From: Synechococcus sp. WH 8016
GTDB taxonomy: Bacteria; Cyanobacteriota; Cyanobacteriia; PCC-6307; Cyanobiaceae
Length of the DNA stretch: 64,000 nt
Assembly (NCBI RefSeq): GCF_000230675.1
Contig: NZ_AGIK01000001.1
Coordinates: 682,001-746,000 of the forward strand
Direction of reading: 5' to 3'
Part shown: piece after piece, positions 4,834 to 63,987 of the stretch
How the letters are laid out: each line of letters opens with the position of its first letter
How positions within the stretch are numbered: position 1 is the first letter of the stretch
Notes under the pieces: generated by a model
The model's input: the letters and a program-made list of their open reading frames with translations, nothing else
Told to the model about the DNA's origin: nothing
Database searches by the model: none
Translations under genes and position numbers: made by a program

Positions 4834-4910
<77 letters not shown>

Positions 4911-4943
4911 TTTATTACCGGTCCATCAAAACCCCAGTCATAG

Positions 4944-4998: not shown

Positions 4999-5090
4999 AG
5001 CGTGTGACTGGTGCCAATGTCCCCTGTAAAGGGGTCCATTCCACTGGGTTTTACCTACCCTGCGTGTGAATTCCGTGTGAATGCGTGTGG
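4999..5090 (+). repeat. Helically phased GTGTG repeats before the integrase (candidate arm sites)
   Basis: CGTGTGA occurs at 5001, 5063 and 5074, and CGTGTGG at 5084; the last three are spaced 11 and 10 bp, one helical turn. A cluster of this kind beside a tyrosine recombinase and its tRNA target is what arm-type recombinase or excisionase sites look like. The last copy overlaps the integrase start. Binding is inferred, not shown. Confidence 0.4.
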
Positions 5091-6205
5091 CGAGTTGGCT
5101 TGATGGAATCAATGGAGCGCTGTCTCACTGCCGTGTGGCTGAGCGTTTCAACACCTATCAACTCAGAGCAACACTGCCTAAGAAGGCGGATGCACGTGCA
5201 ACCTCATATCAAACCATCAGTACAGGGCTTAAGGCCACTCCAGACAACGTGGCACTGCTGAAAGCAATGGCGCTGGAGTTGGATGAACAGATCCAAAGCG
5301 GGACATTTTCCTGGGTTCTCTGGAGTAAGGAAGCACTGAAGAAGAGAGCACAAGGCATCGCAGCTGACGGCATCACCCCAGCAGAATTTGCCTCAGCTAT
5401 TGAGGAGACTTTTAGACACAAGCATCCAGGCGTGGAGCAAAGCTGGAAAACGGCTTGGGGCAAAAAGTTTTCACCTGCATACAAACGCATGCGTTCTGCG
5501 CCAGTAGCAGTGGTGGATGAAGCTGCTTTAAGGGATCTACTGCTTAGTAATCCAAGCCTTGCCGCTCGCAAAACAGATGGCTCTATCTACAGCATCACAA
5601 TTGCCTTCAAGGGTTGGAAGCAGTTTGACCGGAGTTCGATTTTTGAAGCATCCGCTGGTTACACAGCTGCTGAGTTAACTCCTAGAGACATTCCTTCAGA
5701 CGAAGAGCTCTTGGGTTATTACGAAGAAATTGACGCTCCACATTGGAAATGGCTATACGGAATCATGCTCACGTATGGCATCAGACCACATGAGATCGTT
5801 TATTCATCGCTAACGGCAGATGGTCGGCTTGATATTTCAGAAGGAAAAACAGGTGCAAGAGAAGCTTGGCCTTGCAAGCCTGAGTGGGTCAGAAAACTAA
5901 ACCTGAGAGAAGAGCATCGTCCAACACAGTCTTATCAAACAGTTGCGAAAGCTGCTTCAGATTATTTTGCAGAAAAAAAGCCAGGGCGACCTGGCATTCG
6001 TACAAGACCTGCTCGACTTCCTTTTTCGCTTTACACACTGCGACATGCATATGCGATTCGCTTAATGGCGGATGGATACAACAGCGATTTATCTGCCAAG
6101 TTGATGGGTCACTCAGTTCGGGTTCATACAGAGACGTATCGGCGTTGGCTGAACAAATCACATATGGATGCGATGTTTAAGAAGCAGTTGAAGAAACGCG
6201 CTTGA
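5081..6205 (+). CDS. int: Tyrosine recombinase (integrase)
   Basis: A 374-residue site-specific recombinase. The N-terminal half is helical and lysine-rich (SAM-like/arm binding). The C-terminal catalytic domain shows Arg235 in YGIRPHEI, Lys256 in EGKTGARE, Arg321 in LYTLRHAYA (Tyr occupies the place of the first box II His), His344 in LMGHS and the probable nucleophile Tyr353 in ETYRRW. It starts 170 bp after tRNA-Pro in the same direction, the layout of tRNA-targeting islands. Its end overlaps the convergent excisionase-like gene by 29 bp. It should carry out insertion at the tRNA. Confidence 0.9.
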   Translation: MRVASWLDGINGALSHCRVAERFNTYQLRATLPKKADARATSYQTISTGLKATPDNVALLKAMALELDEQIQSGTFSWVLWSKEALKKRAQGIAADGITPAEFASAIEETFRHKHPGVEQSWKTAWGKKFSPAYKRMRSAPVAVVDEAALRDLLLSNPSLAARKTDGSIYSITIAFKGWKQFDRSSIFEASAGYTAAELTPRDIPSDEELLGYYEEIDAPHWKWLYGIMLTYGIRPHEIVYSSLTADGRLDISEGKTGAREAWPCKPEWVRKLNLREEHRPTQSYQTVAKAASDYFAEKKPGRPGIRTRPARLPFSLYTLRHAYAIRLMADGYNSDLSAKLMGHSVRVHTETYRRWLNKSHMDAMFKKQLKKRA

Positions 6206-9905: not shown

Positions 9906-10640
9906 CTAAATTAATTCAAGGGTGGAATTGTAGATATGCTCGTTGCGCTCGTATAAAGCTAACTCGTATCGATCAGCAACATCGTCTAAAGCTTGCCTGT
10001 ACTTCGACATATATCTATTGGCATTCGGATCTTGCCTAATTTGTTCTTCAATAGAAGGGGAGAATAAATTATGCTGAGCAGCACTCGTAAGCTGCTGCTT
10101 TAAAATTTCAAGATCTTTAGAAAGGCTTGTCATATCAATGTCATCAATGATTCCAATACCACTTGGTGTTAATGGGATTTGATGTAGAGGGTTAACACAA
10201 CGTCTCTGCCCGCACAGTGAGATGATTTCGTGTCTACCAATATCTCCCCAGGTCAGCCAACTAGCAACGTGAACTGCATGAAATTTAAAAACTTTACGAA
10301 TAGGAGGACGCTTCCAATAAAAAGCGACGCCCATTTTTGGAACATTGGGAGCAGTCCATTGCCAGCAATCATCTAGGGATGCGATGTTTACTTTGGACCA
10401 GAAGCTCTGTGCTTGCTTACGATGCTCAGGCTTTAAGCGATCAAGATTAAATGATAGTTTAGAGCTTTCTATATTTTCAATACAAGCAAGACAAGCATGG
10501 GAATGCCCGTCTCTATAAACTTCAGTATCACCATGTTCGTGATGCAAACACGGAAGTCCTAAGTAAGGGCTATGTGAATAAACTTTTACGGGCGGTTTAA
10601 GCCCTTTGAATTTATGAAGTGAGGTTCCTTGGGTCCACAT
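9906..10640 (-). CDS. HNH-type endonuclease
   Basis: 244 residues. The N-terminus has Cys/His pairs (LPCLHHEHG, HACLACI) and the centre has a phage-type HNH layout: FWSKV, DDCWQWTAP, then HAVHVASWLTWGDIG, then CGQRRCVNPLHQIPLT, where the Cys pair and NPLH supply zinc and catalytic ligands. The C-terminus is helical (about residues 190-235) and may bind DNA. Such enzymes nick or cut DNA and are common in cyanophages and islands. It is 42 bp downstream of the 864-residue gene on the same strand and has no promoter motif of its own. Confidence 0.75.
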   Translation of the reverse strand: MWTQGTSLHKFKGLKPPVKVYSHSPYLGLPCLHHEHGDTEVYRDGHSHACLACIENIESSKLSFNLDRLKPEHRKQAQSFWSKVNIASLDDCWQWTAPNVPKMGVAFYWKRPPIRKVFKFHAVHVASWLTWGDIGRHEIISLCGQRRCVNPLHQIPLTPSGIGIIDDIDMTSLSKDLEILKQQLTSAAQHNLFSPSIEEQIRQDPNANRYMSKYRQALDDVADRYELALYERNEHIYNSTLELI

Positions 10641-24100: not shown

Positions 24101-24282
24101 GGGTGTAACGCTTTTGCAGATAAAAGACATGCTTTATTGACTACCACGGTAGTCGTGATCCACAGTGCGCCAGGTGCCATCCTCCGCTCAATTCGTTGGG
24201 CGTCGCTACCGCATATTTATATGCCTCCCCGCTCATGTTTTTCATGGGCGTAACTATGGCCGCCAGGTATGGCGGCTTTTTT
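24101..24282 (+). repeat. Hairpin repeat-spacer array A with leader and terminator
   Basis: Leader GGGTGTAACGC... to GCTTTA (24101-24136), hairpin GACTACCACGGTAGTC (24139-24154) with the GTGATCC handle, spacer of 24 nt, hairpin GCTCAATTCGTTGGGC (24186-24201) with the degenerate handle GTCGCTACC, then hairpin GCTCATG-TTTTT-CATGGGC (24231-24249), then the terminator GCCGCC/GGCGGC with T-run (24258-24282). No protein frame fits, so this looks like a complete small non-coding transcription unit of about 180 nt. Confidence 0.7.
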
Positions 24283-27038: not shown

Positions 27039-27157
27039 TGTAAGTCCACCCTTGCCCAACATTGGGCGTGATCCTTATCCCTTTTTGAAGTGGCCCATCA
27101 CATGCTCACGTCAGTGGGCGAAATCACAAGAGGCCACCTACTCGGTGGCTCTCTTTT
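27039..27157 (+). repeat. Hairpin repeat-spacer array B (one spacer)
   Basis: After the SSB-like gene: TGTAAGTCCAC (27039), hairpin GCCCAACATTGGGC (27054-27067) with GTGATCC, spacer 27075-27103 (29 nt), terminal hairpin GCTCACGTCAGTGGGC (27104-27119) followed by GAAATC instead of the handle, then the terminator GGCCACC-TACTC-GGTGGCT with a T-run (27132-27157). Confidence 0.65.
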
Positions 27158-29947: not shown

Positions 29948-30092
29948 GTCCGTTTATCGGACGTGATCCTACCTTGAGCCAGGCGATCTCTGTGGCTTCA
30001 TCACTGATGTATAAGTCCACAACTTGTCCCATTCGTGGGACGTAATTACACATTAGGAATCACTATGGCCGCCAGGGATGGCGGCTTTTTTA
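29948..30092 (+). repeat. Hairpin array C
   Basis: Hairpin GTCCG-TTTAT-CGGAC (29948-29962) with GTGATCC, a long spacer containing TGTATAAGTCCAC (30008), terminal hairpin GTCCCATTCGTGGGAC (30026-30041) followed by GTAATTAC, then the terminator GCCGCC/GGCGGC with TTTTTT (30067-30092). Confidence 0.6.
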
Positions 30093-30136: not shown

Positions 30137-30883
30137 ATGACTACAAATACTACACAATCAAAATCACATAATGTTCCTACTCGTATTACACGTGGACGGC
30201 AACAGTTAATTAGACATCCGCTTTGCCAAAAAGGTTCTGATCGCACAATTATGTCCGGTCACATCGGACAACTTGTAATGATGAAAGGCCGAATTGACAA
30301 ATTCTTCAAACAAGAAAACGGAAAATTTACAATTCTGTTCACTGAGATTGATGTTGTCCTTTGGGACGAAAGAAACCTACCTAAACCACAGCAGACGTTA
30401 ATGCCAATTGATCATCTATGGCAGACAGACATTACTATCAGTGACAGACAATTTGCTTTAGCTGTAGGGGATTTGTGGGGTGGAGTGGGTCATATATACC
30501 CATACACACGTACAAATCAAGAGCGCTCTTACAACGTCGTCACTACACCATCAATCACAGCATCTCGATACATCAGTACGTCTTTAATGCAAATGTTCAA
30601 CGCAATCATAAATTGTGAGAATACAAAATCTGATTATGCAACGATGGTCCACGCAATGGATCGTATACGTACGAACTGCCTTGCAGGATCATTCAATACC
30701 CCCCAAGGGAATAAAACGCTAATCAATCCCATATTTCATACAAAAAATGAGTTAAATACAATACTGAATCAGATTGAACGCAAGGTGCATCACTTTGTAA
30801 AAAGTGGAAACTTGCAAAGCCTAAGTAAATATATTGACCAAATTGCGTTTCATATGGAACGCGGATACCTCTTCTTCCAATAG
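30137..30883 (+). CDS. OB-fold-like unknown protein
   Basis: 248 residues. HIGQLVMMKGRIDKFFKQEN, then KFTILFTEIDVVLWDERN, and DHLWQTDITIS resemble the layout of the 24730 product. The C-terminal part is helical with a basic stretch (QIERKVHHFVKSGNLQSL). No catalytic motif. Its last codons are duplicated downstream within array D. Confidence 0.6.
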   Translation: MTTNTTQSKSHNVPTRITRGRQQLIRHPLCQKGSDRTIMSGHIGQLVMMKGRIDKFFKQENGKFTILFTEIDVVLWDERNLPKPQQTLMPIDHLWQTDITISDRQFALAVGDLWGGVGHIYPYTRTNQERSYNVVTTPSITASRYISTSLMQMFNAIINCENTKSDYATMVHAMDRIRTNCLAGSFNTPQGNKTLINPIFHTKNELNTILNQIERKVHHFVKSGNLQSLSKYIDQIAFHMERGYLFFQ

Positions 30884-31039
30884 TTAAATATGATTGGCAT
30901 CGATTTAATCGTGTAAGTCCAGTCCTGTCCGTATATCGGACGTGATCCTGCGGATATTTGTTCTTCCAATAGTCAAATATACTTGGCATCGATTTAATCG
31001 TGTAAGTCCACTACCTGTCCCATTCGTGGGACGTGATCC
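30862..31039 (+). repeat. 89-bp tandem duplication of gene end plus hairpin
   Basis: The unit starting CGGATA at 30862 (last codons of the 248-residue gene, TGTAAGTCC motif, hairpin, GTGATCC) is repeated at 30951. The intervening text (CTTCCAATAG.CAAATAT, CATCGATTTAATCGTGTAAG) is nearly identical, while the hairpin stems differ in a compensatory way: GTCCG/CGGAC against GTCCC/GGGAC. Confidence 0.85.
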
Positions 31040-31115
31040 CGATGATCGCCGAAGCGGCTCTACCTGCTCAGTTCGCTGGGCGTAACCCAATGGCCCCCTG
31101 TCGGGGGCTTTTTTA
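30912..31115 (+). repeat. Hairpin array D
   Basis: TGTAAGTCC at 30912 and 31001; hairpins GTCCG-TATAT-CGGAC (30927-30941) and GTCCCATTCGTGGGAC (31017-31032), each with GTGATCC; spacer 31040-31065; terminal hairpin GCTCAGTTCGCTGGGC (31066-31081) followed by GTAACC; terminator GCCCCC-TGTC-GGGGGC with TTTTTT (31092-31115). Confidence 0.65.
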
Positions 31116-34744: not shown

Positions 34745-35320
34745 ATGTTATCTCAAGACTTCGCTTCAGCTTTAGGCCAGATACGCAACGAATTGGCTGG
34801 TCTCGTAAAAGAGAATCAGCTATTGCATAAGCGTATCGATGATCTCACGAAACAAGTAGAGCAGTCTGATGAACGCATCTTCAAGCAACAAAGCAAACGC
34901 ATCCGTCAAGCTGCTGCTGCTAACGACTTCGACTCACTCGAAGCTCTCAACAGTGGAGCTATCTCCCCAGTAGATGCAGAATTAATCAGGCTGGCAATGC
35001 CAGTTGAAACTATTCAACCAATTGCAGCTGCTACACCAAACAATGCCTTGGTATTAAACATGATTACAGCGGCTCGTGAAGGACGCTTTGCCCCTCCTCT
35101 CCAACAGCGTTCAGTGCCTGATACACGAAACATCGAGCGTGTTCACTTACAACTTAAAGCCAATGCTGCCGCAATGGCACAACAAGCTCAGATACAACGT
35201 GATAACCAACAACGTTTAGATGCAATTAAACAAGCTGAATACAAAAAACAAAACAATGCTTTAGTGCAACGGTCACCTCTATGGGGAATGGATAGTGATG
35301 GGAAAATTATTGACTATTAA
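34745..35320 (+). CDS. Coiled-coil protein
   Basis: 191 residues. N-terminal coiled coil (about 8-50: LGQIRNELAGLVKENQLLHK), Ala-rich centre, and a Gln/Ala/Lys-rich second helix. Possible scaffold protein. Ends at 35320 just before the HNH gene; an HNH insertion in this operon is plausible. Confidence 0.6.
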   Translation: MLSQDFASALGQIRNELAGLVKENQLLHKRIDDLTKQVEQSDERIFKQQSKRIRQAAAANDFDSLEALNSGAISPVDAELIRLAMPVETIQPIAAATPNNALVLNMITAAREGRFAPPLQQRSVPDTRNIERVHLQLKANAAAMAQQAQIQRDNQQRLDAIKQAEYKKQNNALVQRSPLWGMDSDGKIIDY

Positions 35321-35339
35321 ATTAAACACTGAAAACAAA

Positions 35340-36095
35340 ATGATAAAACATAAACCTATTCCGAAGGATATATCAAACTATTTAAGTATCAACCCTGACA
35401 CAGGAGAAATCTTACGAATCGCTTATTCAGGTTCAAATAGAACTTGTGAAATAGAGCTTGGAACTAGAGCAGGGTATATTGACTCAAGTGGATATCGAAA
35501 ACTATCTTTTAATGGAAAAGAATATCTAGAGCACAGAGTCGCATGGTATCTATATTATGAAGAAGATCCAGGAGACCTAACAGTCGATCATATTGACAGA
35601 AACCCTACAAACAATAAGAAAAATAATCTTCGATTGACCCTACAAAAAGGACAAGCTCAGAATAGAGCAGCATTAGGATATAGCTATTCCTCAAAACACA
35701 ATTTATTTATAGCTCACTTAAAAGTAAATAGCAAATCAAAAAATCTTGGGCATTATGATTGTCCATTACTAGCCAGACTAGCCTATGAGAGCGAAGCGAA
35801 GAAGCATCACGGAGACTTTTTCTGCAGTGATCTACCAGATAATATTATTGGTAGACCAAAAGGTGTTGAAGCTAATGGGCCGCATGGGTCTAAGCATTTA
35901 GGCTATACCAAAGCAGGCAATAGATTTCGAGTAATCGTTACTTTAAAAGGAAAAAGAATTACACAAACTCATCACTGTCCACTACTTGCACGTTATGGGT
36001 ATATTGATTCATTGCTAACGCTAGGGCAGGCATTCAAACCATCCTTCATCCCTAAAGTAGAAATTATTGGCAAAGATATGTCAGACAATTGCTAG
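35340..36095 (+). CDS. HNH homing-endonuclease-like protein
   Basis: 251 residues. The HNH core is EYLEHRVAWYLYY (62-74), then TVDHIDRNPTNNKKNNLRL (81-99); flanking repeats (NLFIAHLKVNSKSKNLGHYD, and HLGYTKAGNRFRVIVTLKGK) look like AP2-type DNA-binding strands. Such nucleases nick or cut DNA and spread as free-standing homing genes. The frame is more AT-rich than its neighbours, which fits separate mobility. Confidence 0.8.
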   Translation: MIKHKPIPKDISNYLSINPDTGEILRIAYSGSNRTCEIELGTRAGYIDSSGYRKLSFNGKEYLEHRVAWYLYYEEDPGDLTVDHIDRNPTNNKKNNLRLTLQKGQAQNRAALGYSYSSKHNLFIAHLKVNSKSKNLGHYDCPLLARLAYESEAKKHHGDFFCSDLPDNIIGRPKGVEANGPHGSKHLGYTKAGNRFRVIVTLKGKRITQTHHCPLLARYGYIDSLLTLGQAFKPSFIPKVEIIGKDMSDNC

Positions 36096-38824: not shown

Positions 38825-39412
38825 GTGTATGATTCTGAAGAAGCAACATACCTATACGTAGTCAGCTGGAAAAACTCTCCAGATGTTTGCAAAATTGGAA
38901 GATCAAACAATCCATCTAGACGATTCAACGATTTTTTAACTGCTCATCACGAGCCTTTACTCGTACATTGCATATGCGATGAACTAGTAATGTCAGAGGC
39001 TAATATGCATAGTCGATTTAAAAGTGCGCAGATCACTTTAGAGCATCACCATTTCACACAAGACATAAAAGATGTACTTGATATGCTCAACATGAGCAGT
39101 AAATTCAAACCATACGAAATCCCAAGAACCCAGTCACAGACTGGTGTTATAGAAACATCTCCATTAGTAGATCAACTAAAAACCACCATTGCTATACCTC
39201 CACTACGCATCTCCCCTATGGAAAAGGAGGTAGCAATCCTGCATGCCATTGGGGCAACAGTAGCCGAATCCGCTGCAGTTCTTGATCTGACTGAAAGCTG
39301 TATCAAATCGCACAGAGCAGGCGTATTACAAAAGTGTTTCACACCGAACACCTCCTCTGCTCTTGTAAAGTTGATAGCTCACGACATCATCACTACTAGA
39401 GATTTGAAATAA
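38825..39412 (+). CDS. GIY-YIG/T5orf172-like domain fused to a LuxR-type HTH
   Basis: 195 residues, GTG start. Residues 1-85 (ATYLYVVSWKNSPDVCKIGR, then SNNPSRRFNDFLTAH, later SEANMHSRFKSA) fit the T5orf172/GIY-YIG nuclease-like fold. Residues ~130-185 (ISPMEKEVAILHAIGATVAE, then SAAVLDLTESCIKSHRAG) resemble the LuxR-type helix-turn-helix. The combination suggests sequence-guided DNA binding or cutting, or an autoregulator. It stands directly upstream of a leader-array unit. Confidence 0.6.
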   Translation: MYDSEEATYLYVVSWKNSPDVCKIGRSNNPSRRFNDFLTAHHEPLLVHCICDELVMSEANMHSRFKSAQITLEHHHFTQDIKDVLDMLNMSSKFKPYEIPRTQSQTGVIETSPLVDQLKTTIAIPPLRISPMEKEVAILHAIGATVAESAAVLDLTESCIKSHRAGVLQKCFTPNTSSALVKLIAHDIITTRDLK

Positions 39413-39657
39413 GGGTGTAACAGATTTGCAGATAAAAGACATGCTTTAGTGGAGAGTTAAACCTCTCTTATATCCACTCCGGTGGATGTGATCCCGCTGC
39501 AGCCGATCGGCGCTGATAATCACCTGCTCATTTCGATGGGCGATGTCCATTCCGATGGACGTGATCCCGAGGCACGAAACCGTTCCTACTTACTTGCTCA
39601 TTTCGATGGGCGTCATGAACAGAAGATTACTCAATGGCCACCTGTCGGTGGCTTTTT
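39413..39657 (+). repeat. Hairpin repeat-spacer array E with leader and terminator
   Basis: Leader from 39413 with hairpin GAGAG-TTAAAC-CTCTC; hairpin ATCCACTCCGGTGGAT (39472-39487) with GTGATCC; spacer 39495-39525; hairpin GCTCATTTCGATGGGC (39526-39541); then GAT and a new first-type hairpin GTCCATTCCGATGGAC (39545-39560) with GTGATCC; spacer 39568-39595; terminal GCTCATTTCGATGGGC (39596-39611) plus GTCATG; terminator GGCCACC/GGTGGC with T-run (39636-39657). Looks like two complete units joined head to tail. Confidence 0.75.
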
Positions 39658-42626: not shown

Positions 42627-42773
42627 ATGAGTCAATTCATTTTTACAACGACAACAATCACATTCATTGTTCTCCTTGCTTTCGCTGTAGAGCAACTTGG
42701 AGAAACGTTCGTAGATGACTACAGACAACGAAGAAACACCCAACAACGAATGGACGAATACCAAGAAGATTGA
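42627..42773 (+). CDS. 48-residue single-span membrane protein
   Basis: MSQFIFTTTTITFIVLLAFA, then a charged tail (DDYRQRRNTQQRMDEYQED). One transmembrane helix with cytoplasmic charged tail. Unknown. Confidence 0.5.
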   Translation: MSQFIFTTTTITFIVLLAFAVEQLGETFVDDYRQRRNTQQRMDEYQED

Positions 42774-42777
42774 ATAA

Positions 42778-42800
42778 CTTCCCCCATTTGGGGGATTACT
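42778..42800. repeat. CCCCCATTTGGGGGAT hairpin
   Basis: Perfect inverted repeat CCCCCATTTGGGGG plus ATTAC between two genes; same family as at 18837, 32466 and 41445. Confidence 0.5.
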
Positions 42801-42826
42801 ACCTAATACACCTTGCTTATATTCAT

Positions 42827-43957
42827 ATGACAACAGCCCCCGCACAACGCTTGCAGTACCTCTATCTCATTGCCTCTGGAAATGAAGATAACATTTTCAA
42901 GATCGGCATAAGCCACAGTCCTACTCAGCGACTGGAGCAAATCAAACGTGATTACAACGTCCCTGATGCTTACATCCTTGAATTTATGGATGTGCCGAGT
43001 AGAGATGAAGTGTTTGCTATTGAAAACGCACTACATACTCGGTTCGATAGCAAGCAATCAACTAAGTACCCTGGGCGTGAATGGTTCAAACTCAGTCCTA
43101 AAGACCTAGAAGATCTTCGATCTCTCTATCAAGAAAACTCAAATAGCTTTGCACAAGCCAGTGCCTACTATGGAATCATTGAAGAGATGGAACGCATATC
43201 TGATGTAGCAGAAACTGAAGACATGAAACGGCGGAAGCAGATTCATCACAATCGCGTCCACGGAAAAACCTATGACACTGCACCTAAAGGAATACTCAAG
43301 CGATACAACGATCTAAGCAGAAAATCTAGTGAAGGAATACTGGCTAGTCGATTCGAATTTCATCGTATCCAACATCCTATCGTTAAAGCTTTAAATGAAG
43401 CGAGGAACGATATTCTAGAAATCATTGGCGAAAAGGTTAAGCCATGTGGACTTCAAGTAGGAGTTATTGGCTTGATGTCTGGCATGGTCCTAGGAAGTGC
43501 TATTGCCCCTGCTGCAGTGAGCCCCATTACTTGGGGAACAACAGCCATTGGATTTATTGCCGGATCAATTTCTGGTGCAGCTAGAAAGTCTAAAGAGTCT
43601 GAAGCCTTAACCATCTCTTTAAATAACTGGGCAGATCACGAGTATCCAAATACTCGATTACAAACAATGGAATTTATTGAAGACAAGACTGAACACAAAA
43701 GCTTACTCATTCGTAAATACACGGAATCAAAACCAGTATTAAGAAAAGAGCCTGCACTTATGCCAAGGATTGACATAACTCAAACTATTACCAAGCCAAT
43801 GAAAGACAGGTACAGTAACAAAAACTATTTCCCAAAAGTAGCCACAGTAGCAACAATAGCTTGTGCTGGATTCTTCGGACTTGCATCTGTCGAAGGACAA
43901 GATAACAACCGTTACTCATTTGAACAAACGCCTCCAGCTATCGAGCGACTTACGTAA
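42827..43957 (+). CDS. T5orf172/GIY-YIG-like protein with membrane segments
   Basis: 376 residues. The N-terminal ~100 residues (LQYLYLIASGNEDNIFKIGI, SHSPTQRLEQIK, then AIENALHTRFDSKQ and YPGREWFKL) show the T5orf172 GIY-YIG-like order KIGxSxxPxxRlxqi...E..lH..F...R....EWF.l. A Gly/Ala-rich double hydrophobic segment follows at about 220-260 and another near 345-360. The nuclease-like head on a membrane-associated body is unusual. Not clearly related elsewhere to the GIY-YIG protein at 38825. Confidence 0.65.
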   Translation: MTTAPAQRLQYLYLIASGNEDNIFKIGISHSPTQRLEQIKRDYNVPDAYILEFMDVPSRDEVFAIENALHTRFDSKQSTKYPGREWFKLSPKDLEDLRSLYQENSNSFAQASAYYGIIEEMERISDVAETEDMKRRKQIHHNRVHGKTYDTAPKGILKRYNDLSRKSSEGILASRFEFHRIQHPIVKALNEARNDILEIIGEKVKPCGLQVGVIGLMSGMVLGSAIAPAAVSPITWGTTAIGFIAGSISGAARKSKESEALTISLNNWADHEYPNTRLQTMEFIEDKTEHKSLLIRKYTESKPVLRKEPALMPRIDITQTITKPMKDRYSNKNYFPKVATVATIACAGFFGLASVEGQDNNRYSFEQTPPAIERLT

Positions 43958-49460: not shown

Positions 49461-49581
49461 GGTGTAACGCTTTTGCAGATAAAAGACATGCTTTAGTGGA
49501 GAGTTAACTCTCTCTTATATCCACTCCGGTGGATGTGATCCCGCTTCTTTGTCTATAGACACTTTGCTCACTACGGTGGGC
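49461..49581 (+). repeat. Hairpin repeat-spacer array F with leader, 5' of the ligase gene
   Basis: Leader GGTGTAACGC... with GAGAG-TTAACT-CTCTC; hairpin ATCCACTCCGGTGGAT (49519-49534) with GTGATCC; spacer 49542-49565 (24 nt); terminal hairpin GCTCACTACGGTGGGC (49566-49581) plus GTCTATTC. The ligase start codon follows 26 bp later with no terminator between, so the array may be part of the ligase mRNA leader. Confidence 0.7.
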
Positions 49582-49607
49582 GTCTATTCTTTATATCTAT
49601 TACAACT

Positions 49608-51845: not shown

Positions 51846-52164
51846 GGTGTAACGCTTTTGCAGATAAAAGACATGCTTTAGTGGAGAGTTAAATCTCTCC
51901 TATCTCCACATCGATAGATTTAGTCTTTATCTATTGGGGCAGTCATCGGACAATCATCAACAATTTTCCGTCACTGACGTAAGTCCCTATCGCAAATATC
52001 CACTTCGGTGGATGTGATCCTATGTACAAGTTCGGCAATTTCTTTTGCTCACTTCGGTGGGCGTGATCCTGAAGCACCGAGAGCTGCGAGTTCACTTTTG
52101 CTCACTTAGGTGGGCGTGATCCTCTCGCAACCAGCATCTGATCTAATTGCTCACTTAGGTGGGC
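51846..52164 (+). repeat. Hairpin repeat-spacer array G with leader
   Basis: Leader from 51846, a decayed first hairpin (ATCTCCACATCGATAGAT), about 75 bp of unrelated sequence, CGTAAGTCC (51979), then hairpin ATCCACTTCGGTGGAT (51998-52013) with GTGATCC and units GCTCAC..GTGGGC at 52047, 52100 and 52149; spacers 52021-52046, 52070-52099, 52123-52148. The last hairpin has GTCCTTATTC in place of the handle. The next start codon is at 52191. Confidence 0.75.
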
Positions 52165-52190
52165 GTCCTTATTCTTTACACAAATACTTT

Positions 52191-52730: not shown

Positions 52731-52742
52731 TTGGAGACACAA

Positions 52743-53813
52743 ATGACATCATCCGTATCAAAAACAAATCTATTCGAAGAAATTGGAGCAGTAGCTGAAG
52801 AGCAAGTGCCACAAGTCATCTTTGGCGACCGTGTCGTCGATGGCGATGAAGCACCACCCGATCTACGCTTACGTGCTCATCTCATGCGATTGCCCTATGA
52901 AGACGAGCGGGTAAATGATCCAGAAATCAGACAATGGATGGAAGACCGACGTTTAGGTGTTGGTGCTTCCGAGATAGCTGTCTTGTTTGGACTATCCCCC
53001 TGGCAGACATTGCGAGATTTGTGGCATGAGAAAGTCCACGGTTGTTCTTACGACCCTGGTAGCGAGCTGTTCCATTGGGGACACACAATGGAACCTGTAG
53101 TCGCTGCTGAATTTGAGAGACGGACAGGTGAGCCAGTCGGAATGCCAGCATCAATGATCATGGTGGGTGAAAAACCACACCATCGTGCAAGTCTTGACCG
53201 TGTGGTTTTAGAAGACGGAGTTGCAGTAGCAGCACTGGAACTCAAGAATCTCCACGAAGGACGCTATGCGGAATACAAATTAGCCGGTCCATCAGTTGGT
53301 TACTTGCTTCAATTGCAGTATCAAATGATTGTTGCTGGCTTGGATTACGGATATTTGGCCTGCCTGTTCGGTGGACAGAAGCTCGGCGTATGGCGAGTGG
53401 TTGGATCACCATCCGTACAACGCGAAATCATTGACCGTGTCGATGAGTTCTGGGGTTACGTCACACGCAAAGAAGAGCCACCTGAATCACTAGGTACACG
53501 TCAGGTATCTATCCCTGCAGGAACTCTGCAGCTAACTGATCCATCGTGGGAAGAAAAGCTCTCGTCTCTGGAGCAAATCCGTATTCAAAAAGCAAAGCTT
53601 GAAAAAGAGGAAAAGATTTTAAAAGCTCAAATAAAAGAAACGATGGGAGAGTTCACGACCGTCGAAGCAGGGCAAATGACTGCATCGTATTCAACATCTA
53701 CACGAAGATCAATTGATACTGCTCGTCTAAAGACTGAGATGCCTGAAATCGTAGAGCAATTCACGAGAGAAGCATCAGTTAAAAGCCTACGTATCCGACA
53801 ACGAAAATCCTAA
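52743..53813 (+). CDS. YqaJ/lambda-exonuclease family recombinase
   Basis: 356 residues, ATG with GGAGA upstream. LGVGASEIAVLFGLSPWQTL, then FHWGHTMEPVVAAEFERRTG, HRASLDRV (Asp about 149), ALELKN (ExK about 164-166) and YLLQLQYQMIVAGLDYGYLA give the complete viral recombinase nuclease core. It resects 5' strands for single-strand annealing. A C-terminal coiled coil (about 275-305) and basic tail follow. The SSB-like protein at 26601 may assist. Confidence 0.87.
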   Translation: MTSSVSKTNLFEEIGAVAEEQVPQVIFGDRVVDGDEAPPDLRLRAHLMRLPYEDERVNDPEIRQWMEDRRLGVGASEIAVLFGLSPWQTLRDLWHEKVHGCSYDPGSELFHWGHTMEPVVAAEFERRTGEPVGMPASMIMVGEKPHHRASLDRVVLEDGVAVAALELKNLHEGRYAEYKLAGPSVGYLLQLQYQMIVAGLDYGYLACLFGGQKLGVWRVVGSPSVQREIIDRVDEFWGYVTRKEEPPESLGTRQVSIPAGTLQLTDPSWEEKLSSLEQIRIQKAKLEKEEKILKAQIKETMGEFTTVEAGQMTASYSTSTRRSIDTARLKTEMPEIVEQFTREASVKSLRIRQRKS

Positions 53814-54462: not shown

Positions 54463-54656
54463 CGCTTTTGCAGATAAAAGACATGCTTTAGTGGAGAGTT
54501 AAATCTCTCCTACATCCACAACATTGGATGCAATACTCTTATCTTTTATTCAATCAAGGGTGTAACGCTTTTGCAGATAAAAGACATGCTTTAGTGGAGA
54601 GTTAAATCTCTCTTATATCCACTTCGGTGGATACGATCCTGACTACTACTGTAGTC
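54456..54656 (+). repeat. Two tandem leader copies with short arrays H and I
   Basis: The first leader (54456) carries one hairpin ATCCA-CAACAT-TGGAT (54514-54529) with no handle or spacer. The second leader (54558) carries ATCCACTTCGGTGGAT (54617-54632), the variant handle ACGATCC and immediately GACTAC-TACT-GTAGTC (54641-54656) with GTAATTT. They are 102 bp apart, a leader duplication; neither has a normal spacer. The next gene starts at 54686. Confidence 0.7.
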
Positions 54657-54685
54657 GTAATTTCCTCCTACTTATATTTTTTCTA

Positions 54686-55236: not shown

Positions 55237-55349
55237 GTCCCCCTACGGGGACGTGATCCTGCGATCGGCGCTGGCGATCTATTGCTCACTTCGGTGGGCG
55301 TGATCCTCCACTTTTCAACATCCTGTAAACCGTGCTCACTTCGGTGGGC
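55237..55349 (+). repeat. Hairpin repeat-spacer array J (two spacers, no leader)
   Basis: Hairpin GTCCCCCTACGGGGAC (55237-55252) with GTGATCC, 9 bp after a stop codon; spacer 55260-55283 (24 nt); GCTCACTTCGGTGGGC (55284-55299) with GTGATCC; spacer 55307-55333 (27 nt); terminal GCTCACTTCGGTGGGC (55334-55349) with GTAATTCC. TGTAAGTCCAC is found at 55393, 48 bp before the next gene. Confidence 0.75.
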
Positions 55350-55440
55350 GTAATTCCTAGTGGCATTTAATTGGCTTAAACCTACCAATTACTGTAAGTC
55401 CACTTGCTAAAAAACCTGTAAACCTCAAACGTTAAATCTA

Positions 55441-56048: not shown

Positions 56049-56411
56049 ATCCACATCTGTGGATGTGATCCTGTCACGCGTCCTCCTTTGCCAAAAACTT
56101 GCTCACTTCGGTGGGCGTGATCCTCGCGAGTTGCCCAGACCCAGATTGCTCACTTAAGTGGGCGTGATCCTTAGTCGGCGACCTGCAGCACAATTGCTCA
56201 CTTCGGTGGGCGTGATCCTGTGACGGACGCAGATTTCGATGGCCTTAATTGCTCACTACGGTGGGCGTGATCCTTCGGGTGGCATGATCGTTGTTTTGCT
56301 CACATACCGTGGGCGTGATCCTACAGCTTCAAGTGCATCTCATAGTGCTCACTCCGGTGGGCGTGATCCTTGAGGCAGGCTGGTGTTACACAATTGCTCA
56401 CTTCGGTGGGC
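56049..56411 (+). repeat. Hairpin repeat-spacer array K (eight hairpins, seven spacers)
   Basis: Longest array. First hairpin ATCCACATCTGTGGAT (56049-56064), then GCTCAC..GTGGGC hairpins at 56101, 56148, 56196, 56251, 56298, 56347 and 56396. The first seven hairpins are followed by GTGATCC(T); the last has GTTTTAATC. Spacers are 29, 24, 25, 32, 24, 25 and 26 nt, all different, usually ending in AATT or ATT before the next hairpin. Loops are TTCG, TTAA, TACG, ATACC and TCCG. No frame reads through. Confidence 0.85.
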
Positions 56412-56465
56412 GTTTTAATCATCAATAACTCTGGACACTTGAGTATATTTATCACGTCAATTATG

Positions 56466-59673: not shown

Positions 59674-59923
59674 ATCTCTCTTATATCTACTTCGGTAGAT
59701 GTGATCCTGATGCAGAGTTTATCCACTAATTGCTCACATACCGTGGGCGTGATCCCTCTTGCGATTATCTGCCGCGCTGCTCACTTCGGTGGGCGTGATC
59801 CTACATGTGGTATTGCTGGCACATTTGCTCACTTCGGTGGGCGTGATCCTTCGTGTTCATCGCAGGTCGGGCCAATTGCTCACTCAGGTGGGCGTTGCCT
59901 CCGATAATTCGGGGGCTATTTTT
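59626..59923 (+). repeat. Hairpin repeat-spacer array L with leader and terminator (four spacers)
   Basis: Leader from 59626; first hairpin ATCTACTTCGGTAGAT (59685-59700), a compensatory CC/GG to CT/AG variant, with GTGATCC; GCTCAC..GTGGGC hairpins at 59732, 59779, 59827 and 59878; spacers 24, 23, 25 and 28 nt; terminal handle GTTGCC; terminator-like CCTCCGA-TAAT-TCGGGGG then CTATTTTT (59898-59923). A complete leader-array-terminator unit. Confidence 0.85.
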
Positions 59924-60856: not shown

Positions 60857-61239
60857 TGTAAGTCCAAGGCGGGGTTTGGGTTGTCCCTCGTGTTTATGCG
60901 TAAAGGAACATCGGGAGGTTTCGACCTCCCTTTGACCACATCTGTGGTCGTGATCCCTGCATCCCTTCCAAAAATTGCTCACTTCGGTGGGCGTGATCCT
61001 CGTAGCAGCAAGCGATCAACTTGCTCACATACCGTGGGCGTGATTCTTCAGCACAGACAATCTGTTTACTCCATTGCTCACATCTCGTGGGCGTGATCCT
61101 GGCGGAAGTGAGACAGATCAATACTCACTTCGGTGGGTGTGATCCTTACGTAATGTCGTTGCATTGCAAATGCTCACTTAGGTGGGCGTGATCCTCAGGA
61201 CCCAGTTCAGACCGCCAAAGCATGCTCACTACGGTGGGC
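60857..61239 (+). repeat. Hairpin repeat-spacer array M (seven hairpins, six spacers, no leader)
   Basis: TGTAAGTCC (60857), hairpin GGGAGG-TTTCGA-CCTCCC (60913-60930), first array hairpin GACCACATCTGTGGTC (60934-60949), then hairpins at 60977, 61023, 61076, 61123, 61172 and 61224. Spacers are 20, 23, 29, 23, 26 and 29 nt. The hairpin at 61123 is ACTCAC..GTGGGT, a compensatory G-C to A-U change. One handle is GTGATTC. The last hairpin has GTAACTAAC. The AEP-like gene starts 64 bp later. Confidence 0.85.
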
Positions 61240-61303
61240 GTAACTAACAATTCTGGTTTGACGCATTACGTATGCAGTTCGAACTAACTATCTTTTAATT
61301 AAA

Positions 61304-62343: not shown

Positions 62344-63987
62344 ATGAATATCAGAATGAAACAAATAGATTTGCAGTTGGAACTGCTAGAAGGGCCAAAT
62401 GCAGACGAAGAATTATTACTAGTATTAAGATCAGCGAAAGCAATATTGCTATCAAAGATTGAAGCAAATGAATATAAAGACGGATACCATGACTTAGCGA
62501 TCAAGGGCTTACAAGATGAGTCGATGCAGGAAAGATATTTAGGTGTATCTGACAAGCACCCGTTTATCGAAGATTTTACTGTTGGTGAGTTTATAGTATT
62601 TGAATCATCTCTTAAAGAGATGCTGGAGTCAAAGACTAAACGCAAGAAGGGACGCCCTCGTAAAACAGAAGAAGACCAAGCTAAGCAAATCCAAAACGAT
62701 GTCCAAATCGTTAGTGAAAAGTTCCAAGGTTTGCGTCATAATCGTATGACTGACCAGTATGAATACTTAAAGATTCACGATCAGACTGGCAAGCTTGGGT
62801 GGCATGAAACAGAAGGCGAAGAACTCAATCAACTGTCAGTTCATCTGGCAGTAGAGCACGGCGTCTTTATTCCTGCTCAACGAGCAAAGGATGCGTTCAT
62901 CTTTGTAGCTAAGAAGAACCCTTACGAGCCTCAACTCGAAATGATTGAGTGGTGCCGTAAGCAGTACCCGACAATGGGTCTTGAAGAAGCACAGGAATTC
63001 CTGTTCTCTCTTGGAGAGCAGTTGCTTGGACACCACGGTGATGAGCCGATTATTTGTGGTGAATATCTTCGCAATAGATTCCTTGCTCGATTTTTAGTTG
63101 CGATGGCATTCCTTGCCAGGCATCCAGGTGAGACACTGCAATGGATGCCAATCCTGGTAGGTGCTCAAGGGTGTGGAAAGAGTCAATTCTGCACGCATCT
63201 TGTACCCCAACGATTTAAGGATTTGTTTCAGCAGATGACCTTGCCAATCGAGACCATCAAACGTGAGCCACACCAATTACATATTGGCTTCTTGCTTGAA
63301 ATGCCTGAAATTGATGCGCAGATGCGTAATCAACGATCAATTGAGCCAATGAAAAACATGGTGACGACTCGTATTGACAATTGCCGTAAGCCATACGCAG
63401 CGCAGCCTGTCAAATTACTTAGACGCTTTGCATTGATTGGAACTACCAATCGATCTGACCTCTTTCAAGATGGCACAGGTGAACGACGGTTTATGCCTAT
63501 CCTCATTCCACATGGGTGGGAAATCCCTTGGGAAGAGGTCCGTGATGGTCTAAATGTAAAGATCTGGGCTGCAGCTGACATCATCGCCGAGACATACACT
63601 GCAAATAGCCGTGAGATGCGTGGGTTCACTGATGAAGAACGCGAAGCACTGAATACTTGGCAAAGGAACTTTACTCAAGTAGATCCTTGGGAAACTAAGT
63701 TGCTCGACTTTGCACGATTAAGGCGTGAGTTCACACCAGGACTTGCTCTGTCTCAGATTGGTGTTGAAGATTCACGGCAAACAACGTCTGATGTAAAACG
63801 ACTCAACAACCTAATGCGACTGCTCTTCACAAGAGATCAAGCAGAATACAAGCAGGTGCGACGTGATAATGGTCGTCCATGGGTATGGATTATCCGTGAG
63901 ATGCCTGGTGGGTCAACAGATGATAAACCAACAGTCACAGATTTAGAAGAATTTGCAGCTCATTTGAAGGCAAAAGCGGACTTCTAA
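62344..63987 (+). CDS. VapE-type P-loop ATPase, copy 2
   Basis: 547 residues. An extra N-terminal helical domain (about 1-100) and basic hinge KRKKGRPRKTEEDQ precede the same core as copy 1: Walker A LVGAQGCGKSQF (about 272-283), LLEMPEIDAQ, TTRIDNCRKPYAAQPVKLLR, RRFALIGTTNRSDLF, TGERRFMPILIP (about 378). Both share the segment before Walker A (QWMPILVGAQG / SWIPIFIGAQG). The C-terminal region is longer. Two diverged VapE paralogs in one element suggest separate initiation or helicase roles or hetero-oligomers. Confidence 0.85.
   Translation: MNIRMKQIDLQLELLEGPNADEELLLVLRSAKAILLSKIEANEYKDGYHDLAIKGLQDESMQERYLGVSDKHPFIEDFTVGEFIVFESSLKEMLESKTKRKKGRPRKTEEDQAKQIQNDVQIVSEKFQGLRHNRMTDQYEYLKIHDQTGKLGWHETEGEELNQLSVHLAVEHGVFIPAQRAKDAFIFVAKKNPYEPQLEMIEWCRKQYPTMGLEEAQEFLFSLGEQLLGHHGDEPIICGEYLRNRFLARFLVAMAFLARHPGETLQWMPILVGAQGCGKSQFCTHLVPQRFKDLFQQMTLPIETIKREPHQLHIGFLLEMPEIDAQMRNQRSIEPMKNMVTTRIDNCRKPYAAQPVKLLRRFALIGTTNRSDLFQDGTGERRFMPILIPHGWEIPWEEVRDGLNVKIWAAADIIAETYTANSREMRGFTDEEREALNTWQRNFTQVDPWETKLLDFARLRREFTPGLALSQIGVEDSRQTTSDVKRLNNLMRLLFTRDQAEYKQVRRDNGRPWVWIIREMPGGSTDDKPTVTDLEEFAAHLKAKADF

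What the first reader, a model, noticed from the sequence alone, without database searches (positions are those of the whole stretch)
56049..56411. CRISPR-like hairpin repeat-spacer arrays with no cas gene in view
Array K has eight hairpins and seven unique 24-32-nt spacers at a 47-55-bp period. The same architecture recurs in about a dozen intergenic regions (24101, 27039, 29948, 30912, 39413, 49461, 51846, 54456, 55237, 56049, 59626, 60857), with about 29 spacers in total. A unit is spacer, GCTCAC-loop-GTGGGC hairpin, GTGATCCT. If cut at the 3' base of each hairpin, each RNA would have an 8-nt 5' handle GUGAUCCU, a ~25-nt guide and a 3' hairpin, the plan of Cas6-processed crRNAs. Unlike CRISPR repeats, loops and stems vary. 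Either a degenerate guide-RNA system using trans-acting proteins, or a new class of tandem small RNAs.
Basis: partly seen in the sequence, partly recalled or inferred. Interest (0 to 1): 0.97.

Follow-up and report, generated by a model that had tools for sequence, protein, structure and literature searches.

The report
Scattered mini-CRISPR arrays in mobile element
An 80-kb mobile DNA element in a bacterium (probably a cyanobacterium) carries its own unusual CRISPR-Cas machinery and keeps its guide RNAs in 17 tiny arrays between its genes instead of one long array.

Summary
The hairpin arrays are real, and they are CRISPR arrays. The window ends 0.8 kb before the cas genes. Downstream lie cas3, cas8e, cas11e, cas7e, cas5e and cas6e, all above Pfam cut-offs; the five Cascade proteins fall below the NCBIfam type I-E cut-offs. 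Handle GTGATCC ends known type I-E repeats (PMC7156538). The system sits in an 80,398-bp element at tRNA-Pro(GGG), flanked by 49-bp repeats, with an empty site in a relative.

Unusual: 70 hairpins in 17 mini-arrays, one strand only; stems and loops vary, and each array opens with a hairpin of another type (0 of 17 versus 46 of 53 begin GCTCA); handle-to-hairpin length 19-32 nt (median 23.5), hence unit period 43-56 nt against 61-64 in ordinary I-E arrays of the same family; no Cas1 (PF01867) or I-E-type Cas2 (PF09707) match in the host's draft genome.

One of 48 spacers matches host DNA, beside the most repeat-like site in 400 kb. No other target was found. Processing, targeting and spacer capture are inferred; there are no RNA data. 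Verdict: new variant of a known kind.

The parts
4837..4910 (+). tRNA-Pro(GGG), integration target
   Evidence: ARAGORN and Rfam
4865..4913 (+). left copy of a 49-bp direct repeat (attL-like); the right copy is 80,398 bp on, at 85263-85311 counted from the window start
   Evidence: empty site in relative G021
5081..6205 (+). tyrosine integrase-like gene
   Evidence: PHROG integrase E=1e-5; Pfam Phage_integrase 17.6 bits, below its cut-off
24139..24202 (+). mini-array 1: 2 hairpins, 1 unit, leader 24105
27054..27120 (+). mini-array 2: 2 hairpins, 1 unit
   Evidence: hairpin 27104 added by hand
29948..30042 (+). mini-array 3: 2 hairpins, no strict unit (degenerate)
30927..31082 (+). mini-array 4: 3 hairpins, 1 strict unit
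39472..39612 (+). mini-array 5: 4 hairpins, 2 units, leader 39417
49519..49582 (+). mini-array 6: 2 hairpins, 1 unit, leader 49464
51998..52165 (+). mini-array 7: 4 hairpins, 3 units, leader 51849
54617..54657 (+). mini-array 8: 2 hairpins, no strict unit; two leader copies (54459, 54562)
55237..55350 (+). mini-array 9: 3 hairpins, 2 units
56049..56412 (+). mini-array 10 (array K of the finding): 8 hairpins, 7 units
59685..59894 (+). mini-array 11: 5 hairpins, 4 units, leader 59630
60934..61240 (+). mini-array 12: 7 hairpins, 6 units
52731..53813 (+). RecE-like/YqaJ exonuclease of the element (possible player in spacer exchange; inference)
   Evidence: PHROG 434 E=1.1e-66, Pfam YqaJ
62344..63987 (+). 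VapE-like helicase gene, last window gene before the cas genes

Best explanation
[quoted passage not shown] Shown by sequence: a full effector gene set (cas3, cas8e, cas11e, cas7e, cas5e, cas6e) interleaved with replication genes and with 17 mini-arrays in gaps between genes; a conserved handle GTGATCC directly after a 6-bp hairpin; an opening hairpin of another type in every array; and no Cas1 or I-E-type Cas2 match in the host genome. Inferred: transcripts are cut by Cas6e at the 3' base of each hairpin, giving RNAs of about 43-57 nt with 5' GUGAUCCN, a guide, and a 3' hairpin that stays on Cas6e. The opening hairpin serves only as a cutting site that frees the first handle, so its sequence is freer. 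The short guides would fit a Cascade with fewer Cas7 subunits than the six of ordinary I-E. The complex most likely acts against competing DNA (phages or other elements) in the same cell, with repression as an alternative outcome for the shortest guides.
For: Cas families above Pfam cut-offs for all six genes; the best PADLOC match is the type I-E model for each: Cas3e 6e-88, Cas8e 8e-19, Cas11e 4e-9, Cas7e 8e-22, Cas5e 1.5e-18, Cas6e 3e-16. The Cas3 alignment to a solved Cas3 keeps the HD, Walker A, DExH and SAT-like motifs (motif names recalled); Cas6e aligns with a solved Cse3 (5u07). Handle GTGATCC ends the type I-E repeat GTTTTCCCCGCACATGCGGGGGTGATCC printed for Lactobacillus casei group strains (PMC7156538, passages). 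47 of 59 GTGATCC words follow a hairpin against 2.8% background; 69 of 70 model hits lie in the element between 24.1 and 74.9 kb, all +. 0 of 17 opening hairpins but 46 of 53 others begin GCTCA. att repeats and empty site. Cas1 PF01867 and Cas2 PF09707: no match in the own genome, while 9 and 2 of 14 control genomes ring.
Against: No RNA data: processing is not shown. No spacer matched a phage: 45 of 48 spacers lay in stretches compared with the phage records by blastn (array K also), and none of the listed matches falls in an array (one search listed 20 of 35 records); 4 of 48 were sought in IMG/VR, none found. Guides of 19-32 nt are shorter and more variable than in I-E systems known to me, so Cascade assembly is unproven. 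The Cascade proteins miss the NCBIfam cut-offs. The whole array has no unusual fold. No relative of the arrays was found in 399 other family genomes, so conservation cannot be tested. Only one Cas2 family was searched, in a 16-contig draft of 99.5% completeness.
Confidence: 0.87

Rival explanations
1. The system is mainly a gene silencer: guides of about 24 nt or less let Cascade bind and block transcription without Cas3 destruction, and the mini-arrays regulate host or rival genes.
For: In the type I-B system of Haloarcula hispanica spacers of 24 bp or less repress the target while interference and priming disappear (PMC10989794, abstract and passages). Handle-to-hairpin length has median 23.5 nt over 48 units. 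One spacer matches a host gene at 24 of 25 positions, although a Cas3 gene with intact-looking motifs is present: destruction of that site would be harmful.
Against: Type I-E complexes with spacers cut by 6 or 12 still degrade DNA, more slowly (PMC7296934, passage). The one host match has a mismatch at guide position 4, so it may be inactive. Cas3 is kept. The other 47 spacers have no known target.
Confidence: 0.25
2. The arrays are fixed structured RNAs, such as processing or stabilising hairpins in long transcripts, and the cas genes beside them are unrelated.
For: Hairpins lie in gaps between genes on the coding strand and often in the presumed leader of the next gene; no variation between strains is known, and stems vary.
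Against: A conserved type I-E handle follows the hairpin; spacers are unrelated to each other (the best pair is reached by 8 of 200 shuffles); mini-arrays stand directly before cas3, cas8e and cas7, and the largest array, of 10 units, stands between cas5 and cas6e.
Confidence: 0.06
3. A decaying CRISPR-Cas system: a former ordinary I-E locus broken up by rearrangement, whose arrays and repeats are rotting.
For: Repeats are not identical; some left arrays are degenerate (29948, 54617: no strict unit); no adaptation genes found.
Against: All six cas frames are open over their length; stems stay paired through changes on both sides (with its selection caveat); leader copies are nearly identical (10 of 12 within one mismatch of the pattern); opening hairpins are cleanly set apart. 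Decay would not keep hairpin and handle in about 50 places.
Confidence: 0.07

Closest known systems
Type I-E CRISPR-Cas (ordinary loci of the same bacterial family, e.g. handles G105, G166, G174, G119, G193)
   Same: Six effector genes of the I-E families; hairpin repeat with 8-nt handle
   Different: Ordinary loci give regular arrays of near-identical repeats at 61-64 nt; here repeats vary, the period is 43-56 nt, arrays are 17 and small, cas genes are split by a DNA polymerase gene and mini-arrays, no Cas1 or I-E-type Cas2 match, and Cas7 is 505 aa
Virus-borne mini-CRISPR arrays of Sulfolobales viruses SPV1/SPV2 (PMC6858448, abstract and passages)
   Same: Mini-arrays in intergenic regions of a mobile genome, with leaders
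   Different: Those have 1-2 spacers, no cas genes, use the host's Cas proteins and repeats like the host's; here 17 arrays hold up to 10 units and the element brings its own Cas set
Complete CRISPR-Cas in phages, such as ICP1 type I-F (PMC6452262, listing and start of abstract only; review PMC11656645, passages)
   Same: A mobile element with its own effector
   Different: Other subtype; no dispersal of arrays over the element is described in what I saw
Nostoc cyanophages A-1/N-1 with a CRISPR array (PMC4916379, listing and start of abstract only)
   Same: Cyanobacterial mobile DNA with a CRISPR array
   Different: Described there as an array; what I saw mentions no Cas set or scattered mini-arrays

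Membership tests
Type I-E CRISPR-Cas | Cas8e, Cas11e, Cas7e, Cas5e, Cas6e and Cas3 genes | tested here: met
   Pfam above cut-offs, PADLOC type I-E models; but below NCBIfam cut-offs for the five Cascade proteins
Type I-E CRISPR-Cas | Repeat with stem-loop followed by an 8-nt 5' handle | tested here: met
   handle as in PMC7156538
Type I-E CRISPR-Cas | Near-identical 28-29-nt repeats and 32-33-nt spacers at regular spacing | tested here: not met
   guide region 19-32 nt, unit period 43-56 nt; repeats vary; family relatives 61-64 nt. This lowers 'ordinary I-E locus', not 'I-E effector with crRNAs'
Type I-E CRISPR-Cas | Cas1 and Cas2 adaptation genes (often but not always present) | tested here: not met
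   no PF01867 or PF09707 match in the own genome; other Cas2 families not searched
Type I-E CRISPR-Cas | crRNA processing by Cas6e at the hairpin base | not testable with these tools
   needs RNA sequencing or an enzyme assay
Type I-E CRISPR-Cas | Spacers match foreign DNA next to a PAM | tested here: inconclusive
   1 of 48 matches, in the host's own gene, 5' neighbour ATG; no phage match found
Virus-borne mini-CRISPR arrays | Carried by a virus, without cas genes, using host Cas proteins | tested here: not met
   own cas genes; virion genes not recognised among 88 proteins scanned
CRISPR-associated transposon (Tn7-like) | Cas3 lost; Tns/TniQ genes | tested here: not met
   Cas3 with HD domain present; Tns/TniQ were not sought as such
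TIGR-Tas arrays | Nop-domain Tas protein; paired short spacers | not tested
   feature list recalled; the unit here has a single spacer, and cas genes explain it

The most novel reading that the evidence does not exclude
A mobile element has turned type I-E CRISPR into a distributed, short-guide system that gains spacers without Cas1-Cas2. New guides enter by recombination or annealing at chance repeat-like sequences in other DNA, helped by the element's own RecE-like exonuclease; the complex with 19-25-nt guides acts as a weapon or silencer against co-resident DNA. The trace is the one host-matching spacer: homology runs from the spacer through the hairpin into the next handle (47 columns, 2 mismatches, 1 gap), and that host site is the best match to the repeat in 400 kb of chromosome (score 17, next 14; 3 shuffled copies reach 13-14).
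Probability: 0.15. Interest if true: 0.92.

Novelty: new variant of a known kind. Interest (0 to 1): 0.74.

Why it matters
It shows that CRISPR arrays need not be recognisable as long identical repeats: a working plan can be kept as hairpin plus handle in many tiny arrays spread over a mobile genome, which searches for identical repeats would tend to overlook (inference; no array finder was run). It offers a natural test of how short a type I-E guide may be, what the opening hairpin of an array does, and whether guides can be gained without Cas1-Cas2.

Tried and rejected
Rejected: (1) antisense or ribosome-binding reading of GTGATCC (it is complementary to the 3' end of 16S rRNA, recalled): unnecessary once the I-E handle was known. 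(2) A crRNA against the element's own cas7 (unit 72138, 18 of 19 matches): shuffled spacers reach its score of 30.2 bits in 6 of 20 sets, so chance. (3) Duplicated, diverged spacers (39488/55253, 64731/74597): 8 of 200 shuffles reach the best pair. (4) A Cas8e relative in G019 (below the cut-off): no island protein matched there. (5) A one-unit remnant in G015: weak, E=0.02 and 0.099; left open. (6) The G021 element near the same tRNA shares some proteins but no arrays. (7) Covariance model in 400 family genomes: 54 with a match at E<=0.1 where about 40 are expected by chance; apart from the own genome none listed has more than two weak hits. (8) Close relatives of Cas7 and Cas3 in IMG/VR and in the GTDB-based genome collection: none; Cas8e and Cas7 in phage records: none; nearest listed plasmid Cas3 is 25% identical. 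(9) Hairpin-handle and leader patterns in IMG/VR: none. (10) Plasmid search with array K: one match at E=0.6, taken as chance. (11) Sigma-70 scan near one leader: one site, shuffles mean 0.8.

Limits: all 48 spacers were compared with 544 kb of the own genome; 28 of them also lay in whole-genome queries, in which only 9 of 24, 20 of 22 and 23 of 27 own-genome candidates were scored. The other 20 were not tested against the remaining 2.15 Mb.

Full report
OBSERVATION. Array K holds eight hairpins and seven spacers of 23-31 nt at a period of 47-55. 47 of 59 GTGATCC words in 144 kb follow a hairpin directly, against 2.8% of positions. Of 70 model hits up to E=1 in that stretch, 69 lie between 24.1 and 74.9 kb, all on the + strand.

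WHAT LIES NEXT DOOR. The window is cut from a 1.26-Mb contig of a 2.69-Mb draft genome. Counting on from the window start, cas3 lies at 64773-67493, a family-A DNA polymerase and its exonuclease at 67870-69695, cas8e at 69857-71563, cas11e at 71550-72062, cas7e at 72175-73692, cas5e at 73689-74342, a 10-unit array at 74350-74839, tRNA-Arg(TCT) at 74844-74919 and cas6e at 74978-75583 (starts are of the longest frames). Pfam cut-offs are passed by all six cas genes. PADLOC assigns each to type I-E. NCBIfam gives the same names but below the cut-off for the five Cascade proteins; two Cas3 domain models are above theirs.

THE ELEMENT. A 49-bp direct repeat starts inside tRNA-Pro(GGG) at 4865 and recurs at 85263. 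The joined flanks match G021 without a gap of element size, 94.5% over 1,956 bp, so 80,398 bp were inserted. An integrase-like gene, ATP ligase, two VapE-like helicases, a RecE-like exonuclease, an endolysin-like gene and a DNA polymerase are recognised. Of 88 proteins scanned against PHROGs none matched a capsid, portal or large terminase; weak matches to a small terminase (E=4.5e-4) and a tape measure protein (E=0.005) were seen. Whether it is a virus is open.

ANATOMY OF THE ARRAYS. 10 of 17 arrays have a leader copy within 260 nt upstream (12 copies in all). Each array opens with a hairpin whose stem is not of the GCTCA type (0 of 17); 46 of the other 53 hairpins are of that type. The full handle GTGATCC follows the opening and inner hairpins of strict units and is missing after the last hairpin of every array, where a G still follows in 17 of 17. 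Stems change on both sides in 5 of 6 pairs, with the caveat that rows were chosen for pairing. Handle-to-hairpin length is 19-32 nt, median 23.5, sd 3.1, n=48. Ordinary I-E arrays found in five stretches of family relatives have steps of 61-64 nt, larger listed steps being multiples.

MECHANISM. By analogy with known type I-E, Cas6e should cut between the last stem base and the G of the handle, giving RNAs with 5' GUGAUCCN. The opening hairpin needs only to be cut, while inner hairpins must also stay on the complex as the crRNA 3' end; this would explain why the former differ and the latter are conserved (inference). Six guide bases per Cas7 subunit (recalled) would give about two fewer Cas7 copies than usual (inference). 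Truncated I-E guides still allow slower Cas3 degradation (PMC7296934, passage), while in a I-B system guides of 24 or less repress without cutting (PMC10989794, abstract and passages). I therefore hold DNA attack on rivals as most likely and silencing as the main rival.

SPACERS. One of 48 stands out: the first spacer of the array beside cas6e matches the host chromosome (G000:C1:633756-633802, E=2.4e-12) in an EF-hand/arginase-family gene (Pfam), 24 of 25 positions, mismatch at position 4, 5' neighbour ATG, which is a known I-E PAM (recalled). Against 544 kb it scores 42.1 bits; 20 shuffled sets reach at most 32.2. The homology runs on through the hairpin and into the next handle; that spot is the best match to the repeat in 400 kb of chromosome, 17 against 14 for the next and 13-14 in three shuffled copies. 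A relative, G006, has the same gene (85%), so the host gene is the likely source. Either the guide was captured with help of this likeness, or this unit seeded the GCTCAC repeat type; I cannot tell which. The hairpin-handle model itself does not ring at the host site (L103). No phage match was found for the 45 of 48 spacers lying in stretches searched (only 20 of 35 records were listed) or for 4 of 48 in IMG/VR.

DISTRIBUTION. The exact hairpin-handle pattern is in 1 of 31 genus genomes, the own one; the leader in 1 of 300 family genomes, the own one. The model gives chance-level hits in the others of 400. Cas8e (PF09481) is above its cut-off in 8 of 300 family genomes including the own. Close relatives of Cas7 and Cas3 were not found in IMG/VR or the GTDB-based genome collection.

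LITERATURE. Six phrases for scattered or dispersed CRISPR arrays gave 0 papers. Other searches listed mini-arrays in viruses and complete systems in phages, and nothing in the listings that I recognised as this layout; most subscription papers are not held.

VERDICT. A genuine, probably functional, CRISPR-Cas variant in a mobile element; function and spacer source remain to be tested.

Noticed in passing
window 24105, 29621, 39417, 49464, 51849, 54459, 54562, 59630; also 64616, 67503, 69701, 72067 counted from the window start: Twelve copies of a conserved leader (GTAACGCTTTTGCAGATAAAAGACATGC and on), with a near-palindrome AAAGACATGCTTT and a GGAGAG hairpin after it in most copies shown; possible promoter or operator of the element.
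   Followed up: partly
L009 10844-10919: tRNA-Arg(TCT) directly after the last hairpin of the 10-unit array, before cas6e.
   Followed up: no
L009 13422-19202 (-): A 1,926-aa protein of the element without a match in Pfam or PHROGs.
   Followed up: partly
G021:C1 about 1,699,700-1,733,900 (L073-L075): Distant relative of the element (VapE-like, BRCT protein and others) a few kb from the empty tRNA-Pro site, without arrays.
   Followed up: partly
G015:C3:47445-47467 (L119 7445-7467): A hairpin matching 22 of 23 bases of an element hairpin, with a handle-like stretch and 26-nt gap before it; possible decayed unit, statistically weak.
   Followed up: partly
window 38825-39412, 42770-43957, 35295-36095, 9906-10640: GIY-YIG-like (T5orf172) and HNH endonuclease genes in the element.
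   Followed up: no
window 30880-31020, 60860, 51980, 27040: A recurring GTAAGTCC motif upstream of several arrays without leader.
   Followed up: no
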